Source: Ruminococcus sp. (GTDB lineage: Bacteria; Bacillota; Clostridia; Oscillospirales; Ruminococcaceae). From it: 50,078 nucleotides of DNA. Both the position numbers and the translations under genes were made by a program. Position 1 is the first letter of the stretch, and each line of letters begins with the position of its first letter. Shown one piece after another: positions 12,387 through 28,489 of the stretch. The stretch covers positions 1-50,078 of the forward strand of contig JAFXXD010000048.1 in assembly GCA_017542475.1 (NCBI GenBank). Direction: 5' to 3'. The notes below the pieces were generated by a model that worked only from the letters and a program-made list of their open reading frames with translations, had not been told where the DNA came from and made no database searches.

Positions 12387-12455
12387 TGTAGGGACGACCA
12401 TTGGTCGTCCGCGCGTATATGGAGAAGTTGCGGACGCGCAATGCGCGTCCCTACA
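12387..12455. repeat. Cloverleaf intergenic element, copy 4 (type GACCATTGGTC/GCGCAATGCGC)
   Basis: Outer TGTAGGGAC/GTCCCTACA. Hairpins are GACCATTGGTC and GCGCAATGCGC. The inner stem GTCCGC/GCGGAC encloses an unrelated loop of about 16 nt. It is a second copy of the type seen at 6276-6343. Confidence 0.85.
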
Positions 12456-12487
12456 GTTCGCTTCAGGTAATTTGTCGTTATGTTCAC

Positions 12488-12767
12488 GGGCGGCGGGACG
12501 CCGCCTCCTGCATCGGGACGCCGAGGGCGGCGTCCCCTACATCTTGTAGCCGTAGATTTGGCGGTGTATTGACGGGCGCACGGAATGCGCCCCTACAAAT
12601 CGTGTCAGGTGGTCGGTCGGTTATTGTGCGGACTGCCAAAGGCAGCCCCTACGATTGGTCGCCGTTAAATTGTCGGTATAATGACGGGACGTCGAGGACG
12701 CCGTCCCCTACAAATCGCAGCCGCGGGTGATTCCGTATGGCGCGGGCGGATAATATCCGCCCCTACA
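12488..12767. repeat. Array of five degenerate or 3'-half cloverleaf elements
   Basis: Five units end in the shared CCCCTAC(A): 12488-12541 (hairpins GGCGGC-GGGAC-GCCGCC and GGGACGCCGAGGGCGGCGTCCC with little 5' outer stem left), 12571-12596 (GCGCACGGAATGCGC), 12628-12652 (CTGCCAAAGGCAG), 12683-12712 (GGGACG...CGTCCC) and 12742-12767 (GGGCGGATAATATCCGCCC). All are on the same strand in the convergent gap between spoVAEB and the yidC fusion. Confidence 0.75.
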
Positions 12768-12793: not shown

Positions 12794-12820
12794 AAGCCGC
12801 CGTTTTAAAAACGGCGGCTT
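12794..12820 (-). terminator. Terminator of the YidC-fusion gene
   Basis: A stem of about 12 bp, AAGCCGCCGTTTT with AAAACGGCGGCTT. Read on the minus strand it is followed by TTTTT. It lies about 20 nt after the stop codon at 12840. Confidence 0.85.
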
Positions 12821-12839: not shown

Positions 12840-14882
12840 TTACTTTCCTGTAAGTCGTTTGATGATGTAACGTCCGCTGAGCTTGTCGCTCTTGCCGATG
12901 TTGTATACGTGCTCCTCGTAGACCTTCTGTATCTTCTCTGCGTATTCCTCATGCTTTGCAAGCATATCCGCTATGACACCGTTGGCCTTTTCAAGCTCGT
13001 CGGGCTTCACTACAGCGCCGACCTCCGTCCTCAGCGTGAGGTTCATCGGCTCCATCCCAAGCTTGTCGTACTCGTTGTTCATCACCTTCATCGGCGTGTC
13101 GATGAACAGCACGGGACGCTTCGTTACAAATGCGAACTCCCACGCGATATCGCTCCAGTCGGTGATGAGTATATCCGATTCCATAACAGGATTGTTCGAG
13201 GAGAAATCGGTCTGTACCGTGATATTGCCGTTGTCCTTGAACTTGTCCTTGAGCTCCTCGAACTTCTCGGGCTCGTGGCGCACCTGCTGGGGATGCGGGC
13301 GGAGGATTATCTCATAGTCCGTCTTGCCGAGCTCGGCGAGCAGTCCGTCTATGCACAGGTCGATGATGTTGTCCGCCTGCCACGACGGAGCTATCAGTAT
13401 CTTCGGCACCTTGTTGGGCTCGTGCTCGGAGCTGTTGTAGGTCGCGAGCATATCGTCCATAAGCGGGTAGCCTGTCTCGACGAGGCGCTTCTTCTGAGTA
13501 TTGTAGACGTCCTCGGAGGCGCGTATCTCGTTGAACTGGTCAACGCTCGGGACAAGTATCGTATCGAACCAGTCGAGCGCACCCTTTCGGAATGTGGCAA
13601 GACTGCCTATACCGTGGCTGGCGAAAACGTACTCGACGTCCTTCTTCACGCGCGAACGCTTGATGTGGTACTTTTCAAGGTCGGGCATAGTCATCACGAC
13701 CATATCGCACTCAAGCTTCATAAACAGCGGCACGAGACGTCTGTCAGAGCCGATGTAGTAGGGGTGTATCTGCGGACGTGTGTCCTCGAATATCTTGTCA
13801 TTCGGGTCGCTCGTTACATAGTGTATGTCGAGGTCGGAGTGCTCGCAGATGTAGTCGATAGTGCCCTTGAAGTATTTGTAGAAGCCGTTCGACTCGGAGT
13901 AGAACATCAGCTTCATATCCTTCACTGCGAAGAACTTCTTGTAGTCCTCCTTCTCGCGGGCATTGTACTTCTTGTGCACCTTTTCCTTCTCTATGCGCTG
14001 CTCGTTCATCTTCTTGAGGTACTCGTAGTCGATGTACTTCTTCGGCGGCATAAGGATATTGTACAGGTACATAAACGGTATCGCGAAGAGGTTGCCGAAT
14101 ATCCAGTACAGACCCACGCCTGCGGGTACGAGGAAGGCAAAGTAGGTCGAGAAGGCTATCATAAACAGGGTGGTGAGCACCTTGTTGAGATTGCCCTGCG
14201 ACACCTGAAGCACGTTTATCTTGTTCTGTATCCAGCACATCAGCCATGCGCTGAGTCCCGACAGCAGCGGTATCAGCAGCAGTATATAGTCGTGCTTGAA
14301 CGAGGGCGTCTTGCTCAGGTCTATGCCGAGGAACATCATATTCAGTTCCTTTATCTGCTCGGCAGGTGCGAGGAGCATATCGGGGAGGGTGTGTCCCTCG
14401 GGGATAAGTGCTCCCTTGATGAGGCTGACTATCTCGAGCTGGTAGGAGTTCTCTGCGAGCTTGGACGGGTCGGCGAATTCGCCCAGCCAGTCCCTGAAGC
14501 TGCTTATTATTCCTGCGTCAAACTGGAGTATGAACGTCAGCGGGTGATACATAACGTACACGAGTCCGAGCACGAGCGGTATCTGTATCAGCAGCGGCAC
14601 GGAGCTCAGCAGCGGGTGGTAGTGGTACTTCTTGTACAGCTTGAGCTGCTCCTCGCCGAGCTTGTCCTTGTCGTCGATGTATTTTATCTTGAGTGCGTTC
14701 TCCTCGGGCATCAGACGGACCATATTTATCGAGTTCTTCTGCGTCACCATATTCAGCGGGAACAGCAGTATCTTCGTCAGGAACGTGAAGATGATGATAC
14801 TGAGTCCGTAGTCGCCGACTATGTTGAATATGAACGTCATCGCCTTGCCGAGGATATTGCCTAAAAAGCTTATTACGATCAT
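12840..14882 (-). CDS. YidC/Oxa1 insertase fused to a CDP-glycerol glycerophosphotransferase-like domain, 680 aa
   Basis: Residues 1 to about 300 are a YidC/Oxa1/SpoIIIJ-type membrane insertase: five predicted membrane segments, the YKKYHYHPLLSSVPLLIQIP region typical of the family, and FLVPAGVGLYWIFGNLF near residue 270. A charged linker (about 305-340) leads to a cytoplasmic domain (about 345-680) matching the teichoic-acid CDP-glycerol glycerophosphotransferase family: ASHGIGS, LIAPSWQADN, ILRPHPQQVR, and SDILITDWSDIAWEFAFVTK followed by RPVLFIDTP. The first helix carries Lys37 (FLTKILLFPL) where characterised YidC proteins have an Arg in the hydrophilic groove. No lipoprotein signal is present. 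It lies 15 nt downstream of a small membrane protein gene in one operon. Both domains look complete, so this is a true fusion, not a frame error. Confidence 0.92.
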   Translation of the reverse strand: MIVISFLGNILGKAMTFIFNIVGDYGLSIIIFTFLTKILLFPLNMVTQKNSINMVRLMPEENALKIKYIDDKDKLGEEQLKLYKKYHYHPLLSSVPLLIQIPLVLGLVYVMYHPLTFILQFDAGIISSFRDWLGEFADPSKLAENSYQLEIVSLIKGALIPEGHTLPDMLLAPAEQIKELNMMFLGIDLSKTPSFKHDYILLLIPLLSGLSAWLMCWIQNKINVLQVSQGNLNKVLTTLFMIAFSTYFAFLVPAGVGLYWIFGNLFAIPFMYLYNILMPPKKYIDYEYLKKMNEQRIEKEKVHKKYNAREKEDYKKFFAVKDMKLMFYSESNGFYKYFKGTIDYICEHSDLDIHYVTSDPNDKIFEDTRPQIHPYYIGSDRRLVPLFMKLECDMVVMTMPDLEKYHIKRSRVKKDVEYVFASHGIGSLATFRKGALDWFDTILVPSVDQFNEIRASEDVYNTQKKRLVETGYPLMDDMLATYNSSEHEPNKVPKILIAPSWQADNIIDLCIDGLLAELGKTDYEIILRPHPQQVRHEPEKFEELKDKFKDNGNITVQTDFSSNNPVMESDILITDWSDIAWEFAFVTKRPVLFIDTPMKVMNNEYDKLGMEPMNLTLRTEVGAVVKPDELEKANGVIADMLAKHEEYAEKIQKVYEEHVYNIGKSDKLSGRYIIKRLTGK

Positions 14883-14897: not shown

Positions 14898-15173
14898 TTA
14901 CTCGTCGTCCTCGTCGTCGTCATCGAGAAGGTCGTCTGCGGTGATAACGTCCTTGCCGTCGTCAGCGCCCTTCATCTCTGCTGCGGGAGCGTCGTCCCCG
15001 GGCTTCTTTTTCTTGACGGCGTTCTTCATCTTTCTCCAGTAGATACCCAGTACGGTTCCGACTGTGATGACTACGCCTGCTACTATCTGAATTATGAGCG
15101 TTGTGGAGCTCGGGTCAAGATATGCGAGCTTTGTTCCCGCGAATACTGCGGAAAGTGCAATGATGTTTTCCAT
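14898..15173 (-). CDS. Small YLDP-motif membrane protein with acidic tail, 91 aa
   Basis: One clear membrane helix (LIIQIVAGVVITVGTVLGIY) preceded by AYLDPSSTT and followed by basic WRKMKNAVKKKK, then a strongly acidic end (DDLLDDDDEDDE). The AYLDP(G/S) motif before a single helix is seen in small proteins near bacterial surface-polymer genes; that is recalled, not searched. Start ATG at 15173 has AAGGAG upstream. It is the first gene of a two-gene operon with the YidC-glycerophosphotransferase fusion, so a role as a partner or scaffold of that protein is a reasonable inference. The function is not established. Confidence 0.85.
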   Translation of the reverse strand: MENIIALSAVFAGTKLAYLDPSSTTLIIQIVAGVVITVGTVLGIYWRKMKNAVKKKKPGDDAPAAEMKGADDGKDVITADDLLDDDDEDDE

Positions 15174-15227: not shown

Positions 15228-15256
15228 ATTATACCACTATTAATAATATATGTCAA
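15228..15256 (-). promoter_or_regulatory. Promoter of the YLDP / YidC-fusion operon
   Basis: TTGACA (15251-15256), 17-nt spacer, TATAAT (15228-15233) on the minus strand. The leader contains an inverted repeat TGTCA-AAAAAC-TGACA (15207-15222) that could be a hairpin or operator. Confidence 0.85.
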
Positions 15257-15456: not shown

Positions 15457-15566
15457 AAATCATCGCCGCCCCTACAAGGCGATTTCAGAGAAAAACTCGT
15501 TTGCTATTGCATTATCGGCGGAAATATGGTAGAATTAACCTGTCATACAAGACGGAAAGGATATTT

Positions 15567-16817
15567 ATGGATAAAAATGATATTTGGAAAATCGCGCTCG
15601 TGGTCGCGATGATGGCGTTCTCTGCCCTCTTCTCGGGTACCGAGACCGCCTATTCCAGCGTGAATAAGCTCAGACTCAAAAACTATGAGTCGCAGGGAAA
15701 TAAAAAAGCCGCCAAGGCGCTCAGGCTCGCCAACCGCTTCGACGAGGTGCTCACCGCCGTGCTCATCGGCAACAATATCGTCAATATCGCGGCTTCGTCC
15801 GTCAGCACGCTCCTCTTCGTCAGCATATTCGGCAGCAAGGGCGCGGGTATCTCCACCGCCGTCATAACCGTGCTGGTGCTCGTCTTCTGCGAGGTGCTGC
15901 CCAAGTCCTATGCCAAGAAGAACGCCGAGAAGATATCCCTCGCGTTCGCCTCGCCGCTGTGGGTGCTGGTCATACTGCTCAAGCCCTTCGTATGGGTGCT
16001 CAATAAGCTCTCGTCGCTGTTTTCAAAGGGCGATGAGGCTCCCACCGTCACCGAGGACGAGCTCAAATATATGATCGACGAGATAGAGGAGGAGGGCGTC
16101 ATCGAGGAGCAGGAGAGCGAGCTCGTCAAGAGTGCCCTCGAATTCGACGAGATATCAGTCGAGGAGATCCTTATCCCTCGCGTCAAGATGATAGGCGTGG
16201 ACGTGACCGACTCCATCGACGAGATAAAGGAGACCTTCACCCGCGAGATGTACTCGCGCCTGCCTGTGTACGAGAAGAGCCTCGACAATATCCTCGGTAT
16301 CATCACGAATAAGGCTTTCTTCAAGATGCTCATCGAGGGCGGCAGCGATATCCGCGGTATCATTCAGGAGGTGCCGCATATCGCCGATACCAAGCTCATC
16401 AGCGAGGCTATGCGCTCGATGCAGCGCTCGAAGGTGCATCTCGCCATCGTCACCGACCAGTACGGCGGCACAAAGGGCATGATAACCCTCGAGGACATCA
16501 TCGAGGAGCTCGTCGGCGAGATTTACGACGAGGACGACGAGATAATCACGAACATAATCAAGCTCGCCGACGATAAATATGAGTGCGCCGGCGACGTCAA
16601 TATCAGTGACCTGCTCGAAATGCTCGGGCTCGACGATGATATGATAGTCACCGAGTATTCGACCGTGGGCGGCTGGATGACCGACCTCCTCGAGCATATC
16701 CCCGAGGCGGGCGAGAGCACCGAGTCGGGCGTGTTCAGGCTCACGGCAGCTGAGGTCAGCGAGCAGAGCGTGGAAAAGGTCATCATAGAGATTCTCCCCG
16801 CCGACAGCGAGGAATGA
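15567..16817 (+). CDS. CNNM/CorC-type (HlyC-like) membrane protein with CBS domains, 416 aa
   Basis: The order is the standard one for this family. The N-terminal DUF21/CNNM membrane domain spans about residues 1-190 and includes FSALFSGTETAYSSVNKLRL and LTAVLIGNNIVNIAASS. A pair of CBS domains spans about 205-325 (EILIPRVKMIGVD, YSRLPVYEKSLDNILGII, IVTDQYGGTKGMITLEDI). The C-terminal CorC/HlyC domain ends near residue 416. Relatives are linked to magnesium or other divalent cation export; the 'haemolysin' label is historical. I start at ATG 15567 (MDKNDIWK) because AAAGG lies upstream; the open frame reaches 15501 but without a ribosome site. It ends in a strong terminator. Confidence 0.9.
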   Translation: MDKNDIWKIALVVAMMAFSALFSGTETAYSSVNKLRLKNYESQGNKKAAKALRLANRFDEVLTAVLIGNNIVNIAASSVSTLLFVSIFGSKGAGISTAVITVLVLVFCEVLPKSYAKKNAEKISLAFASPLWVLVILLKPFVWVLNKLSSLFSKGDEAPTVTEDELKYMIDEIEEEGVIEEQESELVKSALEFDEISVEEILIPRVKMIGVDVTDSIDEIKETFTREMYSRLPVYEKSLDNILGIITNKAFFKMLIEGGSDIRGIIQEVPHIADTKLISEAMRSMQRSKVHLAIVTDQYGGTKGMITLEDIIEELVGEIYDEDDEIITNIIKLADDKYECAGDVNISDLLEMLGLDDDMIVTEYSTVGGWMTDLLEHIPEAGESTESGVFRLTAAEVSEQSVEKVIIEILPADSEE

Positions 16818-16900: not shown

Positions 16901-18136
16901 TCATTTGCCTTCGATACCTGCTATTACTCCGAGAAGCTCCGAGGTCAGCACGCTGAAGTCGTATTTTTTTGCGGCGCTTCGGGCTGCAGCGGCTGTACCG
17001 AGCAGCTCCTGCGCGGACTGACGCGACAGCTCGTCTATCTTTCGGGCGATGTCGTCTACGTCGCCGCTCTCGACAGAAAAGCCTGCACCCTCCTTGAGCA
17101 CGGGATTGTATTTTGCACTGAAATCGCACAGTATCGGTCTGCCTGCTGCCATATAATCGAATATCTTGTTGAAGCTGATACCGAACCTGAACAGCGGTGA
17201 AGCCTCGTTGTGCACGAGGTTCAGGTCTGCGCTGCCCGTTATGAACGGGATATTTTCCTTCTTGACCCAGCCCTTGAAAACGACATTATCTATGTTCTCG
17301 CTCCTCTGACGCTCCTCCAGACGCTCCAGCTCGTCGCCGCCTCCCCATATGAGGAATCTCACCCGCGGCTCCGTCACCTTTTTGGCGATGTCCAGAAGCT
17401 TGTCTATATTGTTCACTCGTCTTATCGCGCCAGTGTATACGACCTTGAAAAGCTCACTGTTCATCAGGTCTGCATCCTCTGTGCGGAAGACCTCCCTGTT
17501 CCTGTCAAACTGCTCCAGATCAATGCCGTTGTTGATGTAGAAGACCTTATCCCGCGGGACATCGTGCTCCCAGCCCTGTTCCTTTATGTAGTCGTATGCG
17601 CCCTCCATTGTGAAGACTATCCTGTCTGCCTGTGTGTAAATGCTCTTCTCTACGCGGCGCAGATATTTCACTATCGGGTTCGCGGGACTTACCCCCTTGT
17701 ATGCGACCAAGGTCTCGGGCCACAGGTCGGCGATCTCGGCGACTGCCTTTATGCCGTGCTTCTTCGCGTACCTTATGCCCTCGTAGCACGATATCGGATC
17801 GAAGGAGGTGGCGACTGCCGCATCAGGTCTGTCAAGCGTATCGAGCACCTTCGGCAGCCTCTTAGCAAAGTCCCTGATGTTGAGCACGCGCTTCATTCCG
17901 TTGCCCTGATAGGGCGTGCAGTTGATGAGCACATATGGGATACCGTCGTCGGTGATGCGCTTTACGCGCTGTCCATCCGTGATAAGGTTCACGCTTTCCG
18001 AGTTGTGCACAGTGCTCGCGGCTATGACGGTCACGTCGTGCCCCGCCTTTATGAGGTTCTTCGCAAACAGCGACGGCCGTGCCAGCGGGTAATACTGCGG
18101 CGGTACCGCATAGTGGTTTATCAGCCATATCTTCAT
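16901..18136 (-). CDS. Family 4 glycosyltransferase (WbuB-like), last gene of the glycan operon
   Basis: 411 aa, GT-B fold. The N-terminal acceptor domain opens MKIWLINHYAVPPQYYPLARP and continues with LIKAGHDVTVIAAS. The C-terminal nucleotide-sugar domain includes FKVVYTGAIRRVNNID, VRFLIWGGGDELERL, and PLFRFGISFNKIFDYMAAGRP, whose Glu/Asp-type donor-binding site is typical of GT4 enzymes. It probably adds a sugar to an undecaprenyl-linked oligosaccharide on the inner face of the membrane. The donor sugar cannot be read from sequence. It sits 3 nt past the truncated gene remnant at 18140-18337, and no terminator of its own is seen beyond the shared 16839-16880 hairpin. Confidence 0.9.
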   Translation of the reverse strand: MKIWLINHYAVPPQYYPLARPSLFAKNLIKAGHDVTVIAASTVHNSESVNLITDGQRVKRITDDGIPYVLINCTPYQGNGMKRVLNIRDFAKRLPKVLDTLDRPDAAVATSFDPISCYEGIRYAKKHGIKAVAEIADLWPETLVAYKGVSPANPIVKYLRRVEKSIYTQADRIVFTMEGAYDYIKEQGWEHDVPRDKVFYINNGIDLEQFDRNREVFRTEDADLMNSELFKVVYTGAIRRVNNIDKLLDIAKKVTEPRVRFLIWGGGDELERLEERQRSENIDNVVFKGWVKKENIPFITGSADLNLVHNEASPLFRFGISFNKIFDYMAAGRPILCDFSAKYNPVLKEGAGFSVESGDVDDIARKIDELSRQSAQELLGTAAAARSAAKKYDFSVLTSELLGVIAGIEGK

Positions 18137-18139
18137 TGG

Positions 18140-18337
18140 TCATCTATCTCCGGTGTGTTTTTTGCCGCTTGTCTCCGAGCCGCAGTCCCAGTCTGTTGTC
18201 CACCTCGCAAAGAGCAGCAGCCCCTCCTTACAGTTCCTGAAAACAGCTCCGTTTTTTATCGGTGCGGTATCGGGCTCCTCGTGCGGAGCGCATTTTGGCA
18301 GCGCAGCGTGGTTGTAATAGCTCCAGCCGTCGATCAT
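18140..18337 (-). pseudogene. Truncated remnant of a surface-polysaccharide acyl/FemAB-like enzyme
   Basis: The frame starts at ATG 18337, overlapping the stop of the upstream gene by ATGA, and encodes only 65 aa. MIDGWSYYNHAALPKCAPHEEP and ARWTTDWDCGSET match, from memory, the extreme N-terminus of an enzyme of about 300 aa common in Firmicute capsule or exopolysaccharide clusters (GNAT/FemAB-like, usually DCGYETEWWY at this point). After SET the similarity stops and the reading frame ends within ten residues. The rest of the gene appears deleted, with the next glycosyltransferase starting 3 nt later. A short functional peptide cannot be excluded but seems unlikely. Confidence 0.65.
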
Positions 18338-19050
18338 TTTCTCGCCTCCAGAATACGCAGGGCTTTTGCCTGCAATGCCTCGTATTCCTCTCTGCTGACC
18401 TTTCCCGCCTTCAGCAGAGCGTCGCCGTAATCGTCGGTGACCTCTGTTTCGGCGGAGCTCTTACCCCTGCCGAACACCTTCTTGAAGGTAAGCAGAGCTA
18501 TCTTCGTATCCTTGGCAAGGCTTACATCGGAAATGTATTTCAGATCCCATTCAAACTTCTGCTCCCATGTTATGGCATTCCTGCCGTTGACCTGCGCAAG
18601 TCCCGTGAGTCCCGGTCTGGCGGTATGGCGCATACGCACCCTGTCGCTCATAAAGACCATATCGCGGACGAGCTGGGGACGCGGTCCGATGAAGCTCATA
18701 TCGCCCTTCAGTATATTGATGAACTCGGGCAGCTCATCGAGGCTCGAGGCTCTCAGCATCCTGCCGAACTTCGGCAGTCTCTGTGAATCGGGGAGAAGCC
18801 TGCCGTCCTTGTCCCTTGCGTCGGTCATAGTGCGGAATTTATACATATCGAAAATTGTTTCTCTGCCTGTTTCGGGGTCTATTATACCCGGGCGGGGCTG
18901 CCTGAAAATGACGGGGCTTCCCATATTTATGCGTACAAGGAGCGCTATGAGCGCGAACAGCCAGCCGAATGCAGCCAGCGCCAGCAGCGACAGAGCTATA
19001 TCCAGTCCCCGCTTTATGTATTTTTCGTAGAATCCTATCCTGCGCTTCAA
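18334..19050 (-). CDS. Initiating phosphoglycosyl transferase (PglC/WcaJ-type sugar transferase)
   Basis: 238 aa, the short monotopic form of the Bac_transf family, which transfers a sugar-1-phosphate to undecaprenyl phosphate to start glycan assembly. One N-terminal membrane segment (IALSLLALAAFGWLFALIAL) is followed by the catalytic domain: VIFRQPRPG, FDMYKFRTM, ASSLDELPEFINILKGDMSF and IGPRPQL with the Asp-Glu dyad, then ARPGLTGLAQVNGRN. A C-terminal extension of about 40 residues is rich in Lys and Glu. The start at 19050 has AGGAG nearby. It lies 40 nt after the aminotransferase gene, and its stop overlaps the remnant start codon. Confidence 0.93.
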   Translation of the reverse strand: MKRRIGFYEKYIKRGLDIALSLLALAAFGWLFALIALLVRINMGSPVIFRQPRPGIIDPETGRETIFDMYKFRTMTDARDKDGRLLPDSQRLPKFGRMLRASSLDELPEFINILKGDMSFIGPRPQLVRDMVFMSDRVRMRHTARPGLTGLAQVNGRNAITWEQKFEWDLKYISDVSLAKDTKIALLTFKKVFGRGKSSAETEVTDDYGDALLKAGKVSREEYEALQAKALRILEARK

Positions 19051-19089
19051 TTCAATATGCTCCTATCCCGTACTGAAGTATCACAGCTC

Positions 19090-20370
19090 TCATCTGAAGC
19101 ACCTGTGAATAATGTCAATGATGATATCCTGTTCGGCTGCTGTCATTTTGTTGTCTGACGGCAGACACAAGCCTCTGCGGAATATATCAGCCCCGACGCA
19201 CGTTTCATCTCCGCTGCGGTCTCTGTATACACGCTCAGATGTTACGAGCGTGTTATTTTCGTAGAGCGGCTGCATATGCATAGGCTTCCATATCGGACGT
19301 CCTTCCGCATTGAAGGCTGCCAGCGCGTCGAGTATCTCCTGCGGCGAGCTCTTGCCGCTCTCGGAGGAGTAGGAGAAGCTGCACCCGCTGCGGAGCTGCT
19401 GAGCCATCGCCGTTTCGTCCACGGTCATACAGCTGAGCCAGTAATTGGGCTCGCTTTTCGCGCCGTCGAACGGGTTCATACGTACGGGGAGGTCTGCCAG
19501 ACCGTCCCTGTATCTTTCGTATATCCGCTTTTTTGCGGTGATATGCCCGCCAAGGTGCGGGAGCTGTCCCCTTACCACGCCTGCAACGATATTGCTCATA
19601 CGGTAGTTGAAGCCGATGTCCTCGTGCTGATACCACGGAGCGGCTTCACGGCTCTGGGTAGACCACTTTCTCACTCTGTCGGCGGCTTCCCTGTCGTCGG
19701 TCAGGAACATTCCTCCGCTCGAGCCTGTGATTATCTTATTGCCGTTGAAGGAGATAATGCTCATATTGCCGAATGTGCCTGTCTGTCTGCCGTTGTATGC
19801 CGCACCGAGCGATTCGGCGGCGTCCTCGACGAGGAGAGCTCCGTGCCTCTCGCAGACAGCCCTTATTTCGTCAAGCTTTGCGGGAGTTCCGTACAGATGG
19901 ACAAGAACGACCAGCCTTACCTCGGGGAAGGCATCAAATGCTCTTTCGAGAGCGGCGGGCTCCATATTCCACGTATCGCGCTCAGAGTCTATGAACACCG
20001 CTTCCCCGTTTTCGTATGCGACGGGATTTACTGTTGCGGCAAAGGTGAGGTCGGAGCAGAATACCCTGTGTCCGCGGAGAGTGCCCTCAGCAGACTGTGG
20101 TCTACCATACAGCTTCTCGCCCGCAAGTCTTACCGCGAGATGCAGAGCTCCGGTACCGCTCGCGAGCGCTACCGCATACCCGCAGCCGAGCTTCTCGGCT
20201 ATGAGCCTTTCACATTCGTTCACGTTTTCTCCCGCGGTAGTTATCCAGTTTCTGGCAAAGGCGTCGGACACCCATTTTTCCTCGTCTCCGTGCATTGTCG
20301 GAGAAGCGAGCCAAATCTTCTTTTCAAACGGTCTTATCCCCGCGAAGCGAGGGTCGTTAGCTATGTTCAT
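19090..20370 (-). CDS. PLP-dependent sugar aminotransferase (DegT/DnrJ/EryC1 family, PglE-like)
   Basis: 426 aa. The core has the family hallmarks: ALASGTGALHLAVRL (phosphate binding), VLVHLYGTPAKLDEI, LLVEDAAESLGAAYNGRQTG, and SFNGNKIITGSSGGM with the PLP-binding Lys, then GFNYRMSNIVAGV. N-terminal IWLASPTMHGDEEKWVSDAF and the ending resemble enzymes that make UDP-4-amino-sugars for surface glycans. A 4,6-dehydratase that would supply the 4-keto substrate is not in this window, so the precise substrate is inference. It is in the same operon as the flippase gene upstream and the phosphoglycosyl transferase downstream. Confidence 0.9.
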   Translation of the reverse strand: MNIANDPRFAGIRPFEKKIWLASPTMHGDEEKWVSDAFARNWITTAGENVNECERLIAEKLGCGYAVALASGTGALHLAVRLAGEKLYGRPQSAEGTLRGHRVFCSDLTFAATVNPVAYENGEAVFIDSERDTWNMEPAALERAFDAFPEVRLVVLVHLYGTPAKLDEIRAVCERHGALLVEDAAESLGAAYNGRQTGTFGNMSIISFNGNKIITGSSGGMFLTDDREAADRVRKWSTQSREAAPWYQHEDIGFNYRMSNIVAGVVRGQLPHLGGHITAKKRIYERYRDGLADLPVRMNPFDGAKSEPNYWLSCMTVDETAMAQQLRSGCSFSYSSESGKSSPQEILDALAAFNAEGRPIWKPMHMQPLYENNTLVTSERVYRDRSGDETCVGADIFRRGLCLPSDNKMTAAEQDIIIDIIHRCFR

Positions 20371-20428
20371 TTTGTACCTCTTTTGCTATTGTACGAATTT
20401 GCAGGGAGTTGACGGGTACGGAGCAGCT

Positions 20429-21946
20429 TCAGCTCCTGTTTTTCCGCAGATCAAGAACGACTGTAAGCTGTTTCCTTCTGAACAGCATTACCAGCCCGAA
20501 ATACATCAGCGTAAATGCCAAGCCCCCGAACAGCGTTCTGACAAGAAGGCTGCTGATGACAATGAGTCTTCCGAAGCTGAAATATAGTATAACGGCAGGG
20601 ATAACGCTGAGAAGCAGTGATACAGCACACTCCGCCGTTATCCTACCGGTGTTCTCGGTCCCGTGCTTTTTAAGACAGTGCAGCAGCAGGAAGTAGGATA
20701 TGACATACGAGAAACTCGTCGATAATGCGATACCCATATGCCTGAGAAGCTTTACGGACAGCAGGTTTAGCACGATATTGCACACGAGAGCAAATACCTT
20801 TATCTTTACTGGCGTTTTTGTGTCCTGCATTGCATAAAAGCCGCGTATAAAATAGGACTGCATCCCCATCGGCAATACTCCGACCGCATAGCATATCATA
20901 CTTTCGGATACGACCTTTGCTGCCGTGTCGCTGAACTGGCCGTGACGGAATATCAGTGCCACGATGTCGTTTGCGTTGAAGATGAGAAACACCGAAACAG
21001 GGCTCAGCAGAAAGCACAGTGCGGACGCATATTTCCTGAACTCGGCACTGAATTCCTCTTTCTTCCCGCCAGCCAGAAGCTTTGAAAAGAAGGGGAATGT
21101 GGCTGTCATTATTGCCGTTGCTATCATCGAGGAAGCGATGTTTCCAATGGTACCCGCATATCCCAGTCCCGATATAGTTCCCTCATCAAGAAAAGATGCG
21201 AGGTTCCTGTCCACTATCAGGCTCATCGACGAGGCAAGGTCCTCGATCAGGAGCGGGATAGTGAGTATGACCATATTCCTTGTGTGCTCTTCCCTCACAT
21301 CAATGCGCGGGGTATATCTGAAAGGAGCTTTCAGACGCACGCCGAACAGTATCATTCCAAGTCCCAGAAGGTGTGCAGTAACTGTGCCCACGCTGAGGAG
21401 GAACGAGTGCTCTGCTGTTGAGATAAACGTGAACAGTATCACAACTATGTTCGTCACCACTCCGTAGAGTGCGGTGCCGATATAGAAGCTGTTCGCCTGC
21501 ATATACGCCTGATACAGGTAGGCGAGGATTATCGGATATATGGAGAATATCACTATCCTCAGCATAAGCACGGATATGCGTTCGGTCTCGTCAGGCAGAC
21601 CGCTTGCGAAAAACTTCAGGACTATCCTCGGGAAAAGCTCGACAAGGAGACAGCCGGCCGACATTATCAACAGGCTGATATTGGTAAGATTCGAGGTAAA
21701 GCGGCTCTTCTCGCCGCTGCTTTCGATCCTCTGATAGCACGGGATGAAATTGATATTTATCGCCGTCGCCAGCGAGGTGAATATCAGCGTAGGTATACTG
21801 TTCGTCAGCACGAAGGCGTCGCTTATGCTGCCAGCGCCGAACTTGTATGCTACCAGCAGCTCGCGCCCGAAGCCCAGTATCTTCGATATCACGGTGCACA
21901 GCATCAGCAGGGCTGAAACCTGCAGTATCTTATTCTTCTTTGACAT
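20429..21946 (-). CDS. murJ: MurJ/MviN-family lipid-linked glycan flippase
   Basis: 505 aa with about 14 hydrophobic helices. The N-terminus has ISKILGFGRELLVAYKFGAG followed by SISDAFVLTNSIP, diagnostic of the MurJ/MviN branch of the MOP flippase superfamily. Also typical are DRNLASFLDEGTISGLGYAG and PMGMQSYFIRGFYAMQDTKT. MurJ moves lipid II across the membrane. A copy embedded in a polysaccharide operon may instead, or also, flip the undecaprenyl-linked product of this cluster, taking the place of a Wzx protein, which is not seen. The housekeeping murJ may lie elsewhere. Confidence 0.92.
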   Translation of the reverse strand: MSKKNKILQVSALLMLCTVISKILGFGRELLVAYKFGAGSISDAFVLTNSIPTLIFTSLATAININFIPCYQRIESSGEKSRFTSNLTNISLLIMSAGCLLVELFPRIVLKFFASGLPDETERISVLMLRIVIFSIYPIILAYLYQAYMQANSFYIGTALYGVVTNIVVILFTFISTAEHSFLLSVGTVTAHLLGLGMILFGVRLKAPFRYTPRIDVREEHTRNMVILTIPLLIEDLASSMSLIVDRNLASFLDEGTISGLGYAGTIGNIASSMIATAIMTATFPFFSKLLAGGKKEEFSAEFRKYASALCFLLSPVSVFLIFNANDIVALIFRHGQFSDTAAKVVSESMICYAVGVLPMGMQSYFIRGFYAMQDTKTPVKIKVFALVCNIVLNLLSVKLLRHMGIALSTSFSYVISYFLLLHCLKKHGTENTGRITAECAVSLLLSVIPAVILYFSFGRLIVISSLLVRTLFGGLAFTLMYFGLVMLFRRKQLTVVLDLRKNRS

Positions 21947-21976
21947 CTTATATAAACCTGCCGCTCACCCCTGCCG

Positions 21977-23305
21977 TCACAGTCTCCAGAACCGCAGTCC
22001 CGATGCCTTCAGCTCGTCCATACGGTAGAGGCTTTTGACGTCGATGAGCACCTTTTCGTCGTCGGGGATACCGTCCTTGAAGAGGGCTTTCAGCTGCATC
22101 ATCGACAGCGAGCGGTATTCGCTGTGACCTACTGCGACGATTATACAGTCAGCCTTGGGAATGCTGTCTAAGGGGACGACGTCCACGCCGTACTCCTGCT
22201 TTGCTACGGCGACATCTGCCCAGCCGTCGGTGACTATCGGGGATATCTCGTATTCCCTCAGGCGTTCGATGATATCGACTACCTTGCTGTTGCGGGTGTC
22301 GGGACAATTCTCCTTGAAGGTTATGCCGAGTATGACCACGGTCGCCTTCTTGGGAGCCATTCCCGCCTCTATCATCTGCTTTATGGACGCGTCGGCGACG
22401 TATGCTCCCATACTGTCATTGACCTTTCTGCCATTTAGGATTATCCTGCTGTGGTAACCGAGCTTTTCAGCCACGTTGGTGAGGTAGTACGGGTCTACGC
22501 CTATACAGTGTCCGCCCACGAGACCCGGCTTGAAGCCGAGCGCGTTCCACTTGGTGTTCATACCTGCCAGCACCTCGGCGGTGTCGATGCCGAGCTTGTC
22601 GCAGATGATAGCTATCTCGTTCATAAAGGCGATATTTATGTCACGCTGGCTGTTCTCGACGACCTTCACTGCTTCTGCGGTCTTGATGTCGGAGACCATA
22701 AACGTGCCTGCCCTGATGATGATATCGTAGACCTTCTGTATCTCAGCGGCGGATTCCGCGTCCGTTCCCGATACGACCTTGCGTATGGACGTGAGCGTGT
22801 GGACTCTGTCGCCCGGGTTTATTCTCTCGGGGCTGTAGCCTATCTTCCAGTCGACGCCGCATTTCAGTCCCGATTCCTTCTCAATTATGGGGACGCAGAT
22901 GTCCTCGGTGACCCCGGGGTAGACGGTGGACTCGAATACGACGATCGAGCCTGCCGAAAGGTTCTGACCGATAGTCCGTGATGCGGCTTCAACGGGTCTG
23001 AGGTCGGGGCTCTTGTCTTCGTTTACGGGGGTGGGGACAGCCACGATTATAAAGCGTGCCTCCTTCAGCCTTGCGGGGTCTGAGGTAAACTCCACAGCCG
23101 TATCCTTTATAGCCTCGCCGACTTCGTTTGTCGCGTCTATGCCGTTCCTGTATTCGTTCACGCGCTTTTCGTTTATATCGAAGCCGATAACGGGGATATG
23201 CTTCGCAAACTCGACTGCGATGGGCATACCGACGTAGCCCAGTCCGACAAGCGCGAGCTTTTCGTTTCCTGTTATCAGTCCGCAGTAAATGTCATCAAAT
23301 CTCAT
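21977..23305 (-). CDS. wbpA: UDP-GlcNAc 6-dehydrogenase (WbpA/TviB-like nucleotide-sugar dehydrogenase)
   Basis: 442 aa. The open frame extends to 23620, but I start at ATG 23305 (MRFDDIYCGLI), with GGAGTG upstream and the preceding gene's stop just before it. The N-terminal NAD domain has LALVGLGYVGMPIAVEFAKH. The central region has FESTVYPGVTEDICVP and SPERINPGD, and the catalytic Cys lies in GGHCIGVDPYYL. LGITFKENCPDTRNSKVVDI closes the UDP-binding domain. The enzyme oxidises the 6-OH of UDP-GlcNAc or a related sugar to a uronic acid with NAD. With wbpB, wbpD and wbpE adjacent, the UDP-GlcNAcA assignment is favoured. Confidence 0.9.
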   Translation of the reverse strand: MRFDDIYCGLITGNEKLALVGLGYVGMPIAVEFAKHIPVIGFDINEKRVNEYRNGIDATNEVGEAIKDTAVEFTSDPARLKEARFIIVAVPTPVNEDKSPDLRPVEAASRTIGQNLSAGSIVVFESTVYPGVTEDICVPIIEKESGLKCGVDWKIGYSPERINPGDRVHTLTSIRKVVSGTDAESAAEIQKVYDIIIRAGTFMVSDIKTAEAVKVVENSQRDINIAFMNEIAIICDKLGIDTAEVLAGMNTKWNALGFKPGLVGGHCIGVDPYYLTNVAEKLGYHSRIILNGRKVNDSMGAYVADASIKQMIEAGMAPKKATVVILGITFKENCPDTRNSKVVDIIERLREYEISPIVTDGWADVAVAKQEYGVDVVPLDSIPKADCIIVAVGHSEYRSLSMMQLKALFKDGIPDDEKVLIDVKSLYRMDELKASGLRFWRL

Positions 23306-23322
23306 ATCGTTCACTCCATAGT

Positions 23323-24444
23323 TCAGCTGATGATAGTATCTGTTACCAGTGCGATGTCTTCCTCGGTAAGGTAGGGGTGCATGGGCAGGCTGAGCACACG
23401 CTCCGTGGCATAGAGGGTATTCGGGAACATCTCGTCCGAAAGCTTCATATCCGCATAAGCCTTCTGCTGATGCAGTCCGCGAGGATAGTATATCATCGAG
23501 GGTATCCCTTTCTCCTTTAGCTTTGCCTGTATTTCGCCGCGCTCCCCGGAGCTGCCGAAGAGGACGGTGTACTGCGCCCAGCTCGAATAGAAGCCCTCGG
23601 GCACAGCGGGCGTTTTGCACACCGCGGAAAGGCGCTCCGTATAGAGCTCTGCCGCCCTGTTCACTGCGGCAAGCTCATAGTCCCTGAAGGCCTTCAGCTT
23701 CGGGAGCAGGACAGCCGCCTGAATCGTGTCGAGGCGCGAGTTCATACCTATCTCGCGGTTGTCGTATTTATCGGTCGGGCTCTTGCCCTGCGCCCTCAGC
23801 GAGCGCAGCCTCTCGGCGGTATCGTCGTCATCGGTGAAGACTGCTCCGCCATCTCCGTAGCAGCCGAGCGGCTTTGCGGGAAAGAACGAGGTAGTTGACA
23901 TATCGCCGAACGAGCACGCCAGCTTTCCACGGATATTTCCGCCGAAGCCCTGTGCGCCGTCCTCGAGCACCTTCAGCCCGTACTTTTCCGCGATGGGGAG
24001 TATCCTGTCATAGTCGGCGGGCTGTCCGAACAGGTCAACGGGGACGATGACCCGCGGTCTGAGCCTGCCCTCCGCGATAACACGCTGTATCTGTGCTTCG
24101 AGGGCTTCTGCGCTCATATTGAAGGTATCGGGGTCTATATCCACGAGCACGGGCGTGGCGCCGAGTATCGAGGCAGTCCCCGCAGACGCGAAGTAGGTGA
24201 AATCCGACGTGAACACGGCGTCTCCCGCGCCCACGCCCCATATCATCAGCGCGAGCTGGAGGGCGTCCGTGCCGTTGCCGCAGGTGACGCAGTGCTTCCT
24301 GCCGACATAAGCCGCCAGCTCGTTTTCGAGCTCCGCCACGGGCTTTCCGAGTATGAAGGCGGAGCTTTCTATCGCGTTCCGCATACCCGCGTCTATTTCA
24401 TTTTTCAGTGCATTGTACTGTGCTTTCAGGTCTCTGAACTGCAT
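23323..24444 (-). CDS. wbpE: UDP-3-keto-sugar aminotransferase (WbpE-like, DegT family)
   Basis: 373 aa PLP enzyme. The visible signatures are CVTCGNGTDALQLALMIWGV (phosphate binding), VDLFGQPADYDRILPIA, KVLEDGAQGFGG, and the PLP Lys in TSFFPAKPLGCYGDGGAVF, then REIGMNSRLDTIQAAVL. It matches WbpE/WlbC-type enzymes that transfer an amino group from glutamate to UDP-3-keto-GlcNAcA. Its start coincides with the wbpD stop (zero gap), and its stop is 17 nt before wbpA, so it is tightly coupled to both. It is clearly different from the second DegT enzyme at 19090-20370. Confidence 0.92.
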   Translation of the reverse strand: MQFRDLKAQYNALKNEIDAGMRNAIESSAFILGKPVAELENELAAYVGRKHCVTCGNGTDALQLALMIWGVGAGDAVFTSDFTYFASAGTASILGATPVLVDIDPDTFNMSAEALEAQIQRVIAEGRLRPRVIVPVDLFGQPADYDRILPIAEKYGLKVLEDGAQGFGGNIRGKLACSFGDMSTTSFFPAKPLGCYGDGGAVFTDDDDTAERLRSLRAQGKSPTDKYDNREIGMNSRLDTIQAAVLLPKLKAFRDYELAAVNRAAELYTERLSAVCKTPAVPEGFYSSWAQYTVLFGSSGERGEIQAKLKEKGIPSMIYYPRGLHQQKAYADMKLSDEMFPNTLYATERVLSLPMHPYLTEEDIALVTDTIIS

Positions 24445-25011
24445 TTACACTATCTCCTCTAATCCGTTTTCGGTTTCCCTGTAGCTGCGCCTGCACTCGG
24501 GGCAGGCGAGAGAGCCGTCCAGCAGCTCACCGCACTCGCAGACCCAGCCTGCTCTTCTGGCGGGAACTCCGAGCATAAGCGCATACGCGGGCACGTCAGA
24601 TGTGACTACCGCTCCTGCGCCTATCAGGGCGCATCTGCCTATGGTGTGACCGCAGACTACCGTCGCGTTTGCGCCTATGGAGGCGCCCTCCTCAACGATC
24701 GTGCGGAGATAGCGCGCGCTTCCCTTGGGGTATTTCGCACGCGGAGTCAGGTCGTTCGTGAACACGCAGGATGGACCGCAGAACACGTAGTCCCCGAGCT
24801 CCACGCCCTCATATACGGACACGTTGTTCTGTATCTTTACGCCGTTTCCTATCCTTACATTGTTCGATACGTTCACATTCTGCCCGAGCGAGCAGTTCCT
24901 GCCTATCCTTGCTCCCGACTGTATGTGGCTGAAATGCCATATCCTTGTTCCTTCCCCGATCTCTGCGCCCTCATCGACGACACTTGTCGGGTGAACGAAA
25001 TAATCGCCCAT
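24445..25011 (-). CDS. wbpD: UDP-3-amino-sugar N-acetyltransferase (WbpD-like, left-handed beta helix) with zinc ribbon
   Basis: 188 aa. Hexapeptide-repeat acyltransferase: AEIGEGTRIWHFSHIQSGA, IGRNCSLGQNVNVSNNV, IGNGVKIQNNVSVYEGV, and VFTNDLTPRAKYP, then GASIGANATVVCGHTIG. These match the WbpD/WlbB acetyltransferases that acetylate the 3-amino group with acetyl-CoA. The C-terminus (about 160-185) carries a four-Cys ribbon, CECG and CPEC, as seen in several members. Start ATG at 25011 lies 4 nt after the wbpB stop. Confidence 0.92.
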   Translation of the reverse strand: MGDYFVHPTSVVDEGAEIGEGTRIWHFSHIQSGARIGRNCSLGQNVNVSNNVRIGNGVKIQNNVSVYEGVELGDYVFCGPSCVFTNDLTPRAKYPKGSARYLRTIVEEGASIGANATVVCGHTIGRCALIGAGAVVTSDVPAYALMLGVPARRAGWVCECGELLDGSLACPECRRSYRETENGLEEIV

Positions 25012-25015
25012 AGCC

Positions 25016-26098
25016 TTACTGCTCCTTGTCGAATCTGCCGACGAAATCCAGCGTCGAGCAGCTGCCGAGCGGCAGCTTTACGGGTCTGTGCTCCGCTGCC
25101 GACTTATATATAGCGAGCACGAGCTCCAGCGCACGTTTTCCTGCCTCGCCGTCAACGTAGGGCTGACGGTGCGTCTTTATTGCGTCGATGACGTCAGCAT
25201 ACAGCGGCGTATGACCGTACCCGTACACATTTGGCGGATTCTCTGCATACACAGCCTTTACGTGCTCGGGGTCGTCAGCTCCGTCCGCAAACGCCCACTC
25301 CTCGATGATATTGTCAGAGGTGCCCGCAGCCTTAGCGGTGCCTGTCTGACCGAATATGTAAAGCGTTTCCTCAAGGTTTTTCGGGTAGACGTTGGTCGTG
25401 CCCTCGATAAGTCCGTAGGAGCCGTTGGAGAACTTTATTATAGCCATACCGAGGTCCTCGCCCTCAAGGTAGGGGTGCTCGAGCTGGTCGGTGTAAGCCA
25501 TCACCTCGTCGATGTCGTCACCCATCATCCACCTGAGAAGGTCGATGTTGTGTATGCACTGGTTCATCAGGCAGCCGCCGTCCTGCGCCCATGTTCCGCG
25601 CCACGGAGCCTGATCGTAGTATTGCTTGCCGCGGTTCCAGCGAACGTGGGCTGCTCCGTGCGAGAGTCGCCCGAATCTGCCGCCCTCGAGAGCCTTTCTG
25701 ATGTACTGTATGGATTTGTTGAAGCGATTCTGGTGATTGGCGCACACTACGACGCCCTTTTCCTTTCCCGCTTTTATTATCGCGTCTGCGTCGGCTATAG
25801 AGAGCGCAATCGGTTTCTCTATGATAACATTGCAGCCCGCATTGATACAGTCTATCGCGATCTGCGCGTGCTTGCCGCTCTCGGTCGCGATGGCGACGAG
25901 CTCTGGGCGCTCGTTCGCGAGCATCTCCTTGTAATCGGTGTATTGCTTCACGCTGCTGCCGAGGGAGAACCTCTCAGCCTTTTCAGCTGTATTTTCGGGA
26001 ATGATGTCGCATATCGCGGCTATCTCGAGCGAATTGTTCTTTGCGGCTTCGATGTGGTTGGGAGATATTCTTCCGCAGCCGATAAGCGCGTATTTCAT
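25016..26098 (-). CDS. wbpB: UDP-GlcNAcA 3-dehydrogenase (WbpB-like, Gfo/Idh/MocA family)
   Basis: 360 aa. The N-terminal Rossmann fold opens MKYALIGCGRISPNHIEAAK, followed by AICDIIPENTAEKAE. The next conserved block is the family's EKPIALSIADADAI, with Lys for catalysis and hydride transfer. The HQNRFNKSIQYIRKALEGG stretch and GGCLMNQCIHNIDLLRWMMG are characteristic of WbpB/WlbA. These enzymes oxidise the 3-OH of UDP-GlcNAc-uronate with NAD, the reaction coupled to WbpE. It is followed by wbpD 4 nt later. Confidence 0.92.
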   Translation of the reverse strand: MKYALIGCGRISPNHIEAAKNNSLEIAAICDIIPENTAEKAERFSLGSSVKQYTDYKEMLANERPELVAIATESGKHAQIAIDCINAGCNVIIEKPIALSIADADAIIKAGKEKGVVVCANHQNRFNKSIQYIRKALEGGRFGRLSHGAAHVRWNRGKQYYDQAPWRGTWAQDGGCLMNQCIHNIDLLRWMMGDDIDEVMAYTDQLEHPYLEGEDLGMAIIKFSNGSYGLIEGTTNVYPKNLEETLYIFGQTGTAKAAGTSDNIIEEWAFADGADDPEHVKAVYAENPPNVYGYGHTPLYADVIDAIKTHRQPYVDGEAGKRALELVLAIYKSAAEHRPVKLPLGSCSTLDFVGRFDKEQ

Positions 26099-26117
26099 AT
26101 GTCAGACCTCCGTGGTA

Positions 26118-27233: not shown

Positions 27234-27279
27234 TTTTTTTATTACCTCTTTTAATATGTACTGACAAGCGTCAGGCGAC

Positions 27280-28428: not shown

Positions 28429-28489
28429 TGTGAATCTCCGCTCAATAAACATCTGTATGTACTGAAATCAATACAATATACCATTTTAT

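What the first reader, a model, noticed from the sequence alone, without database searches (positions are those of the whole stretch)
12840..14882. YidC insertase fused to a teichoic-acid type glycerophosphotransferase domain
A complete-looking membrane insertase domain is joined in one reading frame to a domain with the CDP-glycerol glycerophosphotransferase motifs (SDILITDWSD, LRPHPQ). No standard pathway couples protein insertion with polymerisation of phosphodiester glycans. The insertase part could serve as a membrane anchor or channel for the growing polymer, or the enzyme could modify a substrate as it is inserted. The conserved groove Arg is replaced by Lys37. The pairing with a small YLDP protein suggests a two-protein machine.
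Basis: partly seen in the sequence, partly recalled or inferred. Interest (0 to 1): 0.85.

Follow-up and report, generated by a model that had tools for sequence, protein, structure and literature searches.

The report
YidC-fused headgroup transferase machine
A gut bacterium carries a real, conserved protein that joins a membrane-insertase fold to a teichoic-acid-type transferase; with a tiny membrane protein and an outer-face enzyme it probably decorates the cell surface with small phosphorus-containing groups by a route not yet described.

Summary
One 680-aa frame (12840-14882, minus) joins a YidC/Oxa1 domain (PF02096) to a TagF-like GT-B domain (PF04464). It is no assembly join: full-length homologues in 15 of 60 related genomes and 17 of 394 genomes of the order, window's own included. 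Lys37 is not special: 14 of 16 canonical YidCs have Lys there. A YxDP motif (protein T) lies within 700 nt upstream in 55 of 60 loci. Four modules are shuffled between lineages: Y-G+T+A, Y-G+T-A, Y-A+T-G, G+A. A cytidylyltransferase-type gene stands near 13 of 60 and 10 of 15 loci, with phosphonate or choline pathways in some. Best reading: a membrane machine moving CMP/CDP-activated head groups onto the surface, perhaps in place of LicD. A lipid relay through the YidC groove is plausible but untested. The donor in the window's own genome is unresolved: no PEP mutase was found there.

The parts
12840..14882 (-). Y-G fusion gene, 680 aa: YidC/Oxa1 domain joined to TagF-like GT-B transferase
   Evidence: ORF; PF02096 + PF04464; 58 distinct fusion proteins, window's included; model
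14028..14882 (-). Y module, residues 1-285: YidC/Oxa1 core; Lys37 codon at 14772-14774
13926..14027 (-). helical linker, residues 286-319, in a basic stretch (cytoplasmic side inferred)
   Evidence: helix 286-319; 15 K+R, 10 D+E in residues 276-330
12843..13925 (-). G module, residues 320-680: GT-B glycerophosphotransferase-like domain; His423 (13614-13616) and RPHP His530 (13293-13295) invariant
   Evidence: (invariant columns; Cps3D and TarL by sequence; TagF, TarL by fold)
14898..15173 (-). T gene, 91 aa YLDP protein with one hydrophobic segment, basic then acidic C-tail
   Evidence: (hydropathy; YxDP motif upstream in 55 of 60 loci; 25 T sequences, picked by the motif)
15228..15256 (-). 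promoter-like site upstream of T, 12 of 12 consensus matches, 17 nt spacer, TG before the second hexamer
   Evidence: 6 promoter-like sites found in the region, 2.4 expected; this is the only 12 of 12
12796..12815 (-). intrinsic-terminator-like hairpin after the fusion gene
   Evidence: (4 found in the region, 2.1 expected)

Best explanation
The fusion is one subunit of a membrane machine built from four modules: Y (YidC/Oxa1 fold), G (cytoplasmic TagF-like phosphotransferase), T (small YxDP membrane protein) and A (AlkP-superfamily, LtaS-like enzyme with an outer-face catalytic domain). It decorates surface glycans or lipids with small head groups carried on a CMP/CDP donor: aminoethyl- or hydroxyethylphosphonate where PEP mutase is present, phosphocholine in some lineages, perhaps phosphoethanolamine or others elsewhere. 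In part of the genomes it may stand in for LicD. Proposed steps: (1) G takes the head group from its cytidylyl donor on the cytoplasmic face and puts it on a membrane-bound acceptor [inferred from family and neighbours]; (2) Y's polar groove, with T, holds G and A together and lets the lipid-linked product cross the bilayer [inferred; E. coli YidC itself scrambles lipids in vitro, PMC10491306, passages read]; (3) A transfers the group, or the decorated unit, to the final acceptor outside [inferred from AlkP-superfamily enzymes such as LtaS and PptA]. Shown here: the fusion, its conservation, the T and A partnership, the module shuffling, and cytidylyltransferase genes near a part of the loci. 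Not shown: substrate, acceptor, activity, complex formation, scrambling.
For: A in 14/14 fusion+ genus genomes; among 22 fusion- ones only a 58-residue fragment at E 1e-3 (Fisher 2.6e-10 with that fragment counted as absent; genomes not independent). Permutations confirmed by Pfam: YidC+Sulfatase in one 912-aa protein next to a YIDP+Glyphos_transf protein; YIDP+Sulfatase next to the fusion; standalone G with two Sulfatase-family genes in an operon with PEP mutase-, Ppd- and AEP-transaminase-like genes. PEP mutase in 12/14 fusion+ and 4/22 fusion- (one of the 4 below cut-off). Of PEP-mutase genomes 9/12 fusion+ lack LicD and 3/4 fusion- have it (P 0.12, not significant). Flanks: cytidylyltransferase-type gene near 13/60 loci and 10/15 order-level loci, A near 38/60 and 13/15; the main seeds gave no hit in 10 control regions of 170 kb. 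Two loci carry a protein with choline kinase and LicC-like domains, one of them also a BCCT transporter. L250 has A, Y-G, Ppd, NTP-CyT-PEP mutase and an ADH-like gene together. Presumed catalytic residues are invariant in G and A. Groove polar residues are conserved.
Against: The window's genome (94% complete) has no PEP mutase, no phosphonopyruvate decarboxylase over cut-off and no LicD, so its donor is unknown; it does hold a cluster on contig C37 with a LicC-like NTP-transferase and a TagD-like cytidylyltransferase domain. In its genome A is on another contig. PEP mutase was not found in G022, G036 and G452 either. 47 of 60 loci show no cytidylyltransferase in the flank held (many flanks are cut). 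The G+A operon of G431 shows neither Y nor T in the 15.5 kb held, so Y is not needed for the chemistry. LicD contrasts are not significant. No biochemical data.
Confidence: 0.5

Rival explanations
1. TagF/TarL-like polymerase: the G domain makes poly(glycerol- or ribitol-phosphate) from a CDP-alditol, and Y is only its membrane anchor.
For: Closest solved structures by sequence are Cps3D and TarL; TagF is top by fold, tied with 2-epimerases. The window's genome has a 459-aa protein with a TagD-like cytidylyltransferase domain plus a GFO/IDH oxidoreductase domain, which could make a CDP-polyol; related hits in G004, G008, G022 and G036.
Against: TIGR01518 passes its cut-off in 1 of 34 genomes searched. 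Neighbours, where informative, are LicC/PntC-type nucleotidyltransferases, choline kinase and phosphonate genes. YidC groove residues are conserved, more than an anchor needs. A co-occurs strictly in the genus, which a TagF polymerase does not need.
Confidence: 0.2
2. Private insertase: the Y module inserts or assembles T and A (T in the window is a short N-out single-span protein, by recall a typical YidC substrate), and the fusion ties biogenesis of the complex to the transferase.
For: Y keeps the YidC groove and the loop between its first helices. A YxDP motif is just upstream in 55/60 loci. A separate canonical YidC exists in the genome, so the fused copy is free to specialise.
Against: A signal-peptide-like leader is seen by eye in 14 of 25 listed T proteins. 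A permuted form fuses Y to A instead of G. G431 does without Y and T.
Confidence: 0.2
3. Y is a passive membrane anchor for a soluble transferase, without groove function.
For: Standalone G exists without Y, and T takes the place of Y on G in the T-G proteins.
Against: Polar groove columns (T33, K37, Q100, S211, Q219, N223, S245, N264) are the same in 57 or 58 of 58 fusions.
Confidence: 0.1

Closest known systems
TagF / TarL teichoic acid polymerases and TagF-like Cps3D (PF04464)
   Same: G module belongs to PF04464, GT-B fold, conserved His positions
   Different: Fused to YidC; partners T and A; no consistent CDP-glycerol pathway; where informative the neighbours are head-group nucleotidyltransferases
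YidC/Oxa1/SpoIIIJ insertases (PF02096)
   Same: Y module: same fold; groove Lys shared with canonical clostridial YidC
   Different: Separate branch (100/100, stem 1.85, long-branch warning given there), C-terminal enzyme, a second copy besides the canonical YidC
Lic-1 phosphocholine pathway (LicA, LicC, LicD)
   Same: CDP-choline-type donor genes: a choline kinase + LicC-like protein beside two fusion loci
   Different: Final transferase is not LicD (PF04991); 11 of 14 fusion+ genus genomes have no LicD
Phosphonyl tailoring (Ppm, Ppd, AEPT, PntC; PMC6697681)
   Same: PEP mutase, its cytidylyltransferase domain and Ppd near 7 of 60 fusion loci; PEP mutase and Ppd in 12 of 14 fusion+ genus genomes
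   Different: The 2019 paper leaves the transfer step open; this machine is a candidate for it. Not present in the window's own genome
LtaS and PptA/EptA-type AlkP-superfamily transferases
   Same: Partner A: PF00884, profile matches LtaS 2w5r/2w5q among other sulfatases, conserved presumed catalytic residues
   Different: Tied to Y-G and T; substrate unknown

Membership tests
YidC/Oxa1 family (PF02096) | Profile match over curated cut-off across the core | tested here: met
   117.5 bits, cut-off 35, residues 25-274; TIGR03592 96.3 bits, cut-off 84.3
YidC/Oxa1 family (PF02096) | Polar intramembrane groove with a basic residue | tested here: met
   position 37 is K in 57 and R in 1 of 58 fusions; other polar columns conserved
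YidC/Oxa1 family (PF02096) | Protein insertase activity | not testable with these tools
   needs complementation or reconstitution
CDP-glycerol glycerophosphotransferase superfamily (PF04464) | Profile match over curated cut-off | tested here: met
   52.4 bits, cut-off 22.1; one distant fusion, L251, falls just under it with 21.1 bits
CDP-glycerol glycerophosphotransferase superfamily (PF04464) | Two conserved active-site His regions (HG and R-x-H-P) | tested here: met
   H423 and H530 invariant in 27 fusions and in 14 rows including T-G and standalone G; the equation with the TagF catalytic His residues is recalled, not mapped residue by residue
TagF-type teichoic acid polymerase | CDP-glycerol supply (TagD) in the genome | tested here: inconclusive
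   1 of 34 genomes over the TIGR01518 cut-off; the window's genome has 110.9 bits against cut-off 165.4
TagF-type teichoic acid polymerase | Polymerase activity | not testable with these tools
   no assay
Phosphonyl tailoring pathway (Pnt) | PEP mutase in the same genome | tested here: not met
   none in the window's genome, 94% complete; found in 12 of 14 fusion+ genus genomes. The window's system is therefore not filed as a Pnt pathway
LicD transferases (PF04991) | LicD domain | tested here: not met
   no PF04991 in the protein at E up to 1; none in the window's genome
LtaS-like AlkP-superfamily enzyme (partner A) | Sulfatase/AlkP domain over cut-off | tested here: met
   PF00884 over cut-off in the A copies scanned from L048, L050, L052, L054, L065, L049 and L242; the window genome's own copy was not scanned but is 44% identical to L065's in the alignment
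LtaS-like AlkP-superfamily enzyme (partner A) | Metal and nucleophile residues | tested here: met
   D232, T269, H435, D487, H488 (L065 numbers) invariant in 9 rows, window genome's copy included; their assignment as catalytic is by motif, recalled

The most novel reading that the evidence does not exclude
A YidC-fold insertase domain has been recruited as a lipid scramblase inside a cross-membrane relay. G loads a cytidylyl-activated phosphono/phospho head group onto a lipid at the inner face, the Y groove (with T) passes it across, and A hands it to a surface polymer at the outer face. This would be a class of surface-tailoring machine not described in the papers searched, linking the CDP-donor route (LicD type) and the lipid-donor route (PptA type), and to my knowledge the first YidC-family member whose job is lipid, not protein, traffic.
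Probability: 0.25. Interest if true: 0.9.

Novelty: new variant of a known kind. Interest (0 to 1): 0.72.

Why it matters
A 2019 paper states that the steps leading to phosphonyl modifications of bacterial surfaces are unknown (PMC6697681, passages and one section read). This family gives concrete, testable candidate genes for the transfer step in cultured organisms, and a natural system in which a YidC-type groove may work on lipids. If so, it would tie together insertase evolution, lipid scrambling and cell-surface chemistry in gut and rumen Firmicutes.

Tried and rejected
Assembly artefact: rejected.

Lys37 as a special substitution: rejected.

Link of the window's neighbouring polysaccharide cluster (16901-28452) to the fusion: not tested directly. 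Gene sizes and orientations around relatives vary, and an opposite-strand CNNM gene (15501-16817) lies between.

Plasmid spread: tblastn of the fusion against 72,556 plasmid records found nothing at 1e-10.

Absence of PEP mutase in the window's genome as an assembly gap: tested with the DNA of the G004 pepM locus. 52 matches came back, those listed all to the last fifth or so of the query and scattered over many contigs; inconclusive.

Literature: of eight searches, bear on this fusion or module set; none of the papers listed is about it. Searches asked about scrambling and rumen phosphonates. PMC6697681 was read in outline, section 7 and passages, PMC10491306 and PMC10434233 in passages; of all others only listings were seen. 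Absence in print is claimed only for those searches of the held library.

A plain Foldseek search of the model was not run. The VIA-align list is filled mainly by GT-B folds, and TagF rows are tied with 2-epimerases, so fold alone does not single out TagF.

Controls that are weak: the 10 control regions come from other genomes and are not matched by lineage; two of them (L197, L198) are ordinary PF04464 loci that do show a TagD-like gene by eye, which the seeds did not pick up at 1e-6. So the control speaks for LicC/PntC, PEP mutase and A seeds, not for every kind of cytidylyltransferase.

Rows dropped or relabelled: in the YidC tree two rows labelled canonical (L108, L112) are fusions cut by contig ends; they were left out. 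That tree carries a warning of long branches meeting, and holds no order-level fusions found later. In one search, 4 of 21 matches (G597, G665, G692, G755) cover only the YidC half and are not counted as fusions. The tallies missed some frames and were replaced by the raw counts. Seeds for the flank counts came in part from fusion loci (L054, L065, L086, L091, L111, L138), so the 60-locus counts are partly circular; the 15 order-level loci gave seeds only for signal peptidase and the solute-binding protein. The 25 T sequences were picked by the YxDP motif in chosen loci, so the motif itself is not evidence there. In the tree of G halves the standalone G of G431 falls inside the Y-G rows on a long branch, so Y-G is not one side of a branch there: loss of Y, or a long-branch effect.

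Full report
Observation. Window 12840-14882 (minus) is one frame of 680 aa. Pfam places 60KD_IMP at 25-274 (117.5 bits) and Glyphos_transf at 454-600 (52.4 bits), both above cut-off. The window genome (G000, 2.66 Mb, 94% complete) has one other YidC, on contig C4, in surroundings that read by eye as rnpA-yidD-yidC-jag, and no other PF04464 match. The 91-aa YLDP gene ends 15 bp before the fusion. A promoter-like site with 12 of 12 matches lies upstream of it, and a terminator-like hairpin follows the fusion, so the two look like one operon.

Not an artefact. A search of 60 related genomes found the full-length fusion in 14 of 36 same-genus genomes (G000 included) and in one of another family. 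A scan of named genome contigs gave 60 loci, by title mostly Ruminococcus and Oscillospiraceae MAGs, with the cultured R. flavefaciens YRD2003 and MC2020 and Ruminococcus sp. FC2018; in 3 of the 60 the contig ends inside the gene. 58 distinct fusion proteins, the window's included, were aligned; both halves and the junction are conserved, the outer loop and the C-terminus less so. In 394 genomes of the order 21 match the fusion profile at 1e-60; 17 of these (7 families, G000 included) match through the G half and 4 only through the YidC half. For three of the 17 the profile match starts inside the Y half, but their frames also encode a YidC domain. In 398 genomes drawn from the phylum the G half has a match at 1e-3 in 12, most of them weak. 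The YidC halves form one branch apart from canonical YidCs (100/100, stem 1.85), with a warning about long branches.

The third partner. In many loci a ~600-700-aa gene precedes the YLDP gene. It is an AlkP-superfamily protein with a hydrophobic N-terminal part (PF00884) whose profile matches LtaS structures and other sulfatases. Asp232, Thr269, His435, Asp487 and His488 are invariant in nine diverse copies. Searching 41 chosen genomes with the copy from L065, all 14 fusion-bearing genus genomes have it, G000 on contig C43; of the 22 other genus genomes only G028 gives anything, a 58-residue fragment at E = 1e-3 (Fisher 2.6e-10 with that fragment as absent, genomes not independent).

Module shuffling. 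Pfam scans show four arrangements: Y-G with separate T and A (window's clade, G036); Y-G with T fused to A (L048, G452); Y fused to A (912 and 916 aa) near T fused to G (L050 and L052), with L051 alike by homology; and free G followed by two Sulfatase-family genes, without Y or T in the stretch held, in an operon with PEP mutase-, Ppd-, NTP-transferase- and AEP-transaminase-like genes (L049, G431). The Y-A form is rare: 2 of 398 phylum genomes. G and A are each joined to Y in one lineage and to T in another, as expected of parts of one complex. Topology is consistent: G follows a C-in element, and A carries its own helices (inferred). In a tree of G halves the free G of G431 falls inside the Y-G rows on a long branch: loss of Y, or a long-branch effect.

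T. A YxDP motif in a forward frame lies within 700 nt upstream in 55 of 60 loci; in several order-level loci T follows the fusion instead. In 25 T sequences, picked by the motif, it is followed by one hydrophobic segment with small residues and then a basic stretch; 14 have a leader that looks like a signal peptide ending in Ala just before the Tyr (by eye, no predictor run). Signal peptidase I genes sit near the fusion in 4 of 15 order-level loci but only 1 of 60 others, 6 kb away (Pfam for L237 and L238). The mature N-terminus would then be Y-x-D-P on the outer face in those proteins (inferred); the window's T has only a short N-terminus.

Donors. PEP mutase (TIGR02320) is in 12 of 14 fusion+ and 4 of 22 fusion- genus genomes, one of the 4 (G005) below the curated cut-off (P 1e-4). 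Phosphonopyruvate decarboxylase over cut-off: 12 of 14 versus 5 of 22. LicD: 3 of 14 versus 11 of 22 (P 0.16). Among PEP-mutase genomes, 9 of 12 with the fusion lack LicD and 3 of 4 without the fusion have it (P 0.12). In flanks of the 60 loci: PEP mutase 7 (all with its cytidylyltransferase domain and Ppd), any CMP/CDP-activating gene 13, A 38; in 15 order-level loci: NTP-transferase 10, A 13, PEP mutase 1. Many flanks are cut by contig ends. Ten control regions (170 kb, canonical yidC or weak PF04464 loci of other genomes) gave no hit to the main seeds, although two of them show a TagD-like gene by eye. Of 7 further fusion-bearing order genomes whose cytidylyltransferase-like hits I fetched, 6 have PEP mutase there (L257-L261, L263); the other order genomes were not searched for it. 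L086 and L077 have a protein with LicC-like and choline kinase domains, L086 also a BCCT transporter. L091 and L076 have an NTP-transferase fused to a class I aminotransferase, in L091 closest to CobD-type decarboxylases though below their cut-off, which hints at ethanolamine or aminopropanol phosphate (inferred). Hydroxyethylphosphonate is inferred from an alcohol-dehydrogenase-like gene beside pepM in G004, named by eye.

The window's own genome is the weak point. It has no PEP mutase, no Ppd over cut-off and no LicD. On contig C37 it has a class V aminotransferase related to PhnW (139.8 bits, cut-off 360.8), a DUF2284 gene, a LicC-like NTP-transferase and a 459-aa protein with a TagD-like cytidylyltransferase domain plus an oxidoreductase domain. 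A DUF2284 + NTP-transferase pair also stands beside the fusion operon in G606 (L249). The product of C37 is unknown; a CDP-polyol cannot be excluded, which keeps the TagF rival alive.

Mechanism. Known head-group routes are a CDP donor used by LicD and a lipid donor used by the AlkP-superfamily enzyme PptA (PMC10434233, passages read). Here a cytoplasmic transferase of a CDP-alcohol-using superfamily (G) and an outer-face AlkP-type enzyme (A) go together through a YidC fold and a small membrane protein. E. coli YidC scrambles phospholipids in vitro, and the Oxa1-family insertases tested scramble in simulation (PMC10491306, passages read). A relay in which G loads a lipid, Y lets it cross and A uses it outside is the simplest scheme that gives every module a task; all three steps are inference. 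That G431 has G and A without Y and T shows that the chemistry does not require Y.

Verdict.

Noticed in passing
window 16901-28452, minus strand: Surface-polysaccharide cluster: glycosyltransferases, Bac_transf, two DegT aminotransferases, MurJ-type flippase, UDP-sugar dehydrogenase, hexapeptide-repeat protein, GFO/IDH oxidoreductase.
   Followed up: partly
window 12387-12767: Several imperfect palindromic repeats of the form GGGCG...CGCCCCTACA; of 264 loci held, one outside the window's own stretch has an exact copy of a 23-base piece, just downstream of the AlkP-like gene in G004 (L165).
   Followed up: partly
L252 (G000 contig C37) 7537-11293: PhnW-like aminotransferase, DUF2284, LicC-like NTP-transferase and a TagD-like cytidylyltransferase-oxidoreductase protein: an unassigned CDP-X pathway; related cytidylyltransferase hits in G004, G008, G022, G036.
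   Followed up: partly
L237 2416-2982, L238 6424-6927: Signal peptidase I genes next to T and the YidC fusion, perhaps processing T just before its YxDP motif.
   Followed up: partly
L076 8027-10573: 848-aa protein joining NTP-transferase, class I aminotransferase and methyltransferase domains beside the fusion; could make an N-methylated activated head group.
   Followed up: no
L138 9679-10839: 386-aa weakly Rossmann-like protein of unknown role between the PEP mutase and Ppd genes and the fusion in G029; a close relative in L084.
   Followed up: no
L197 6910-7299, L198 15246-15644: Two weak PF04464 loci of other families show a TagD-like gene nearby by eye, as expected of ordinary CDP-glycerol users, unlike the fusion loci.
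   Followed up: no
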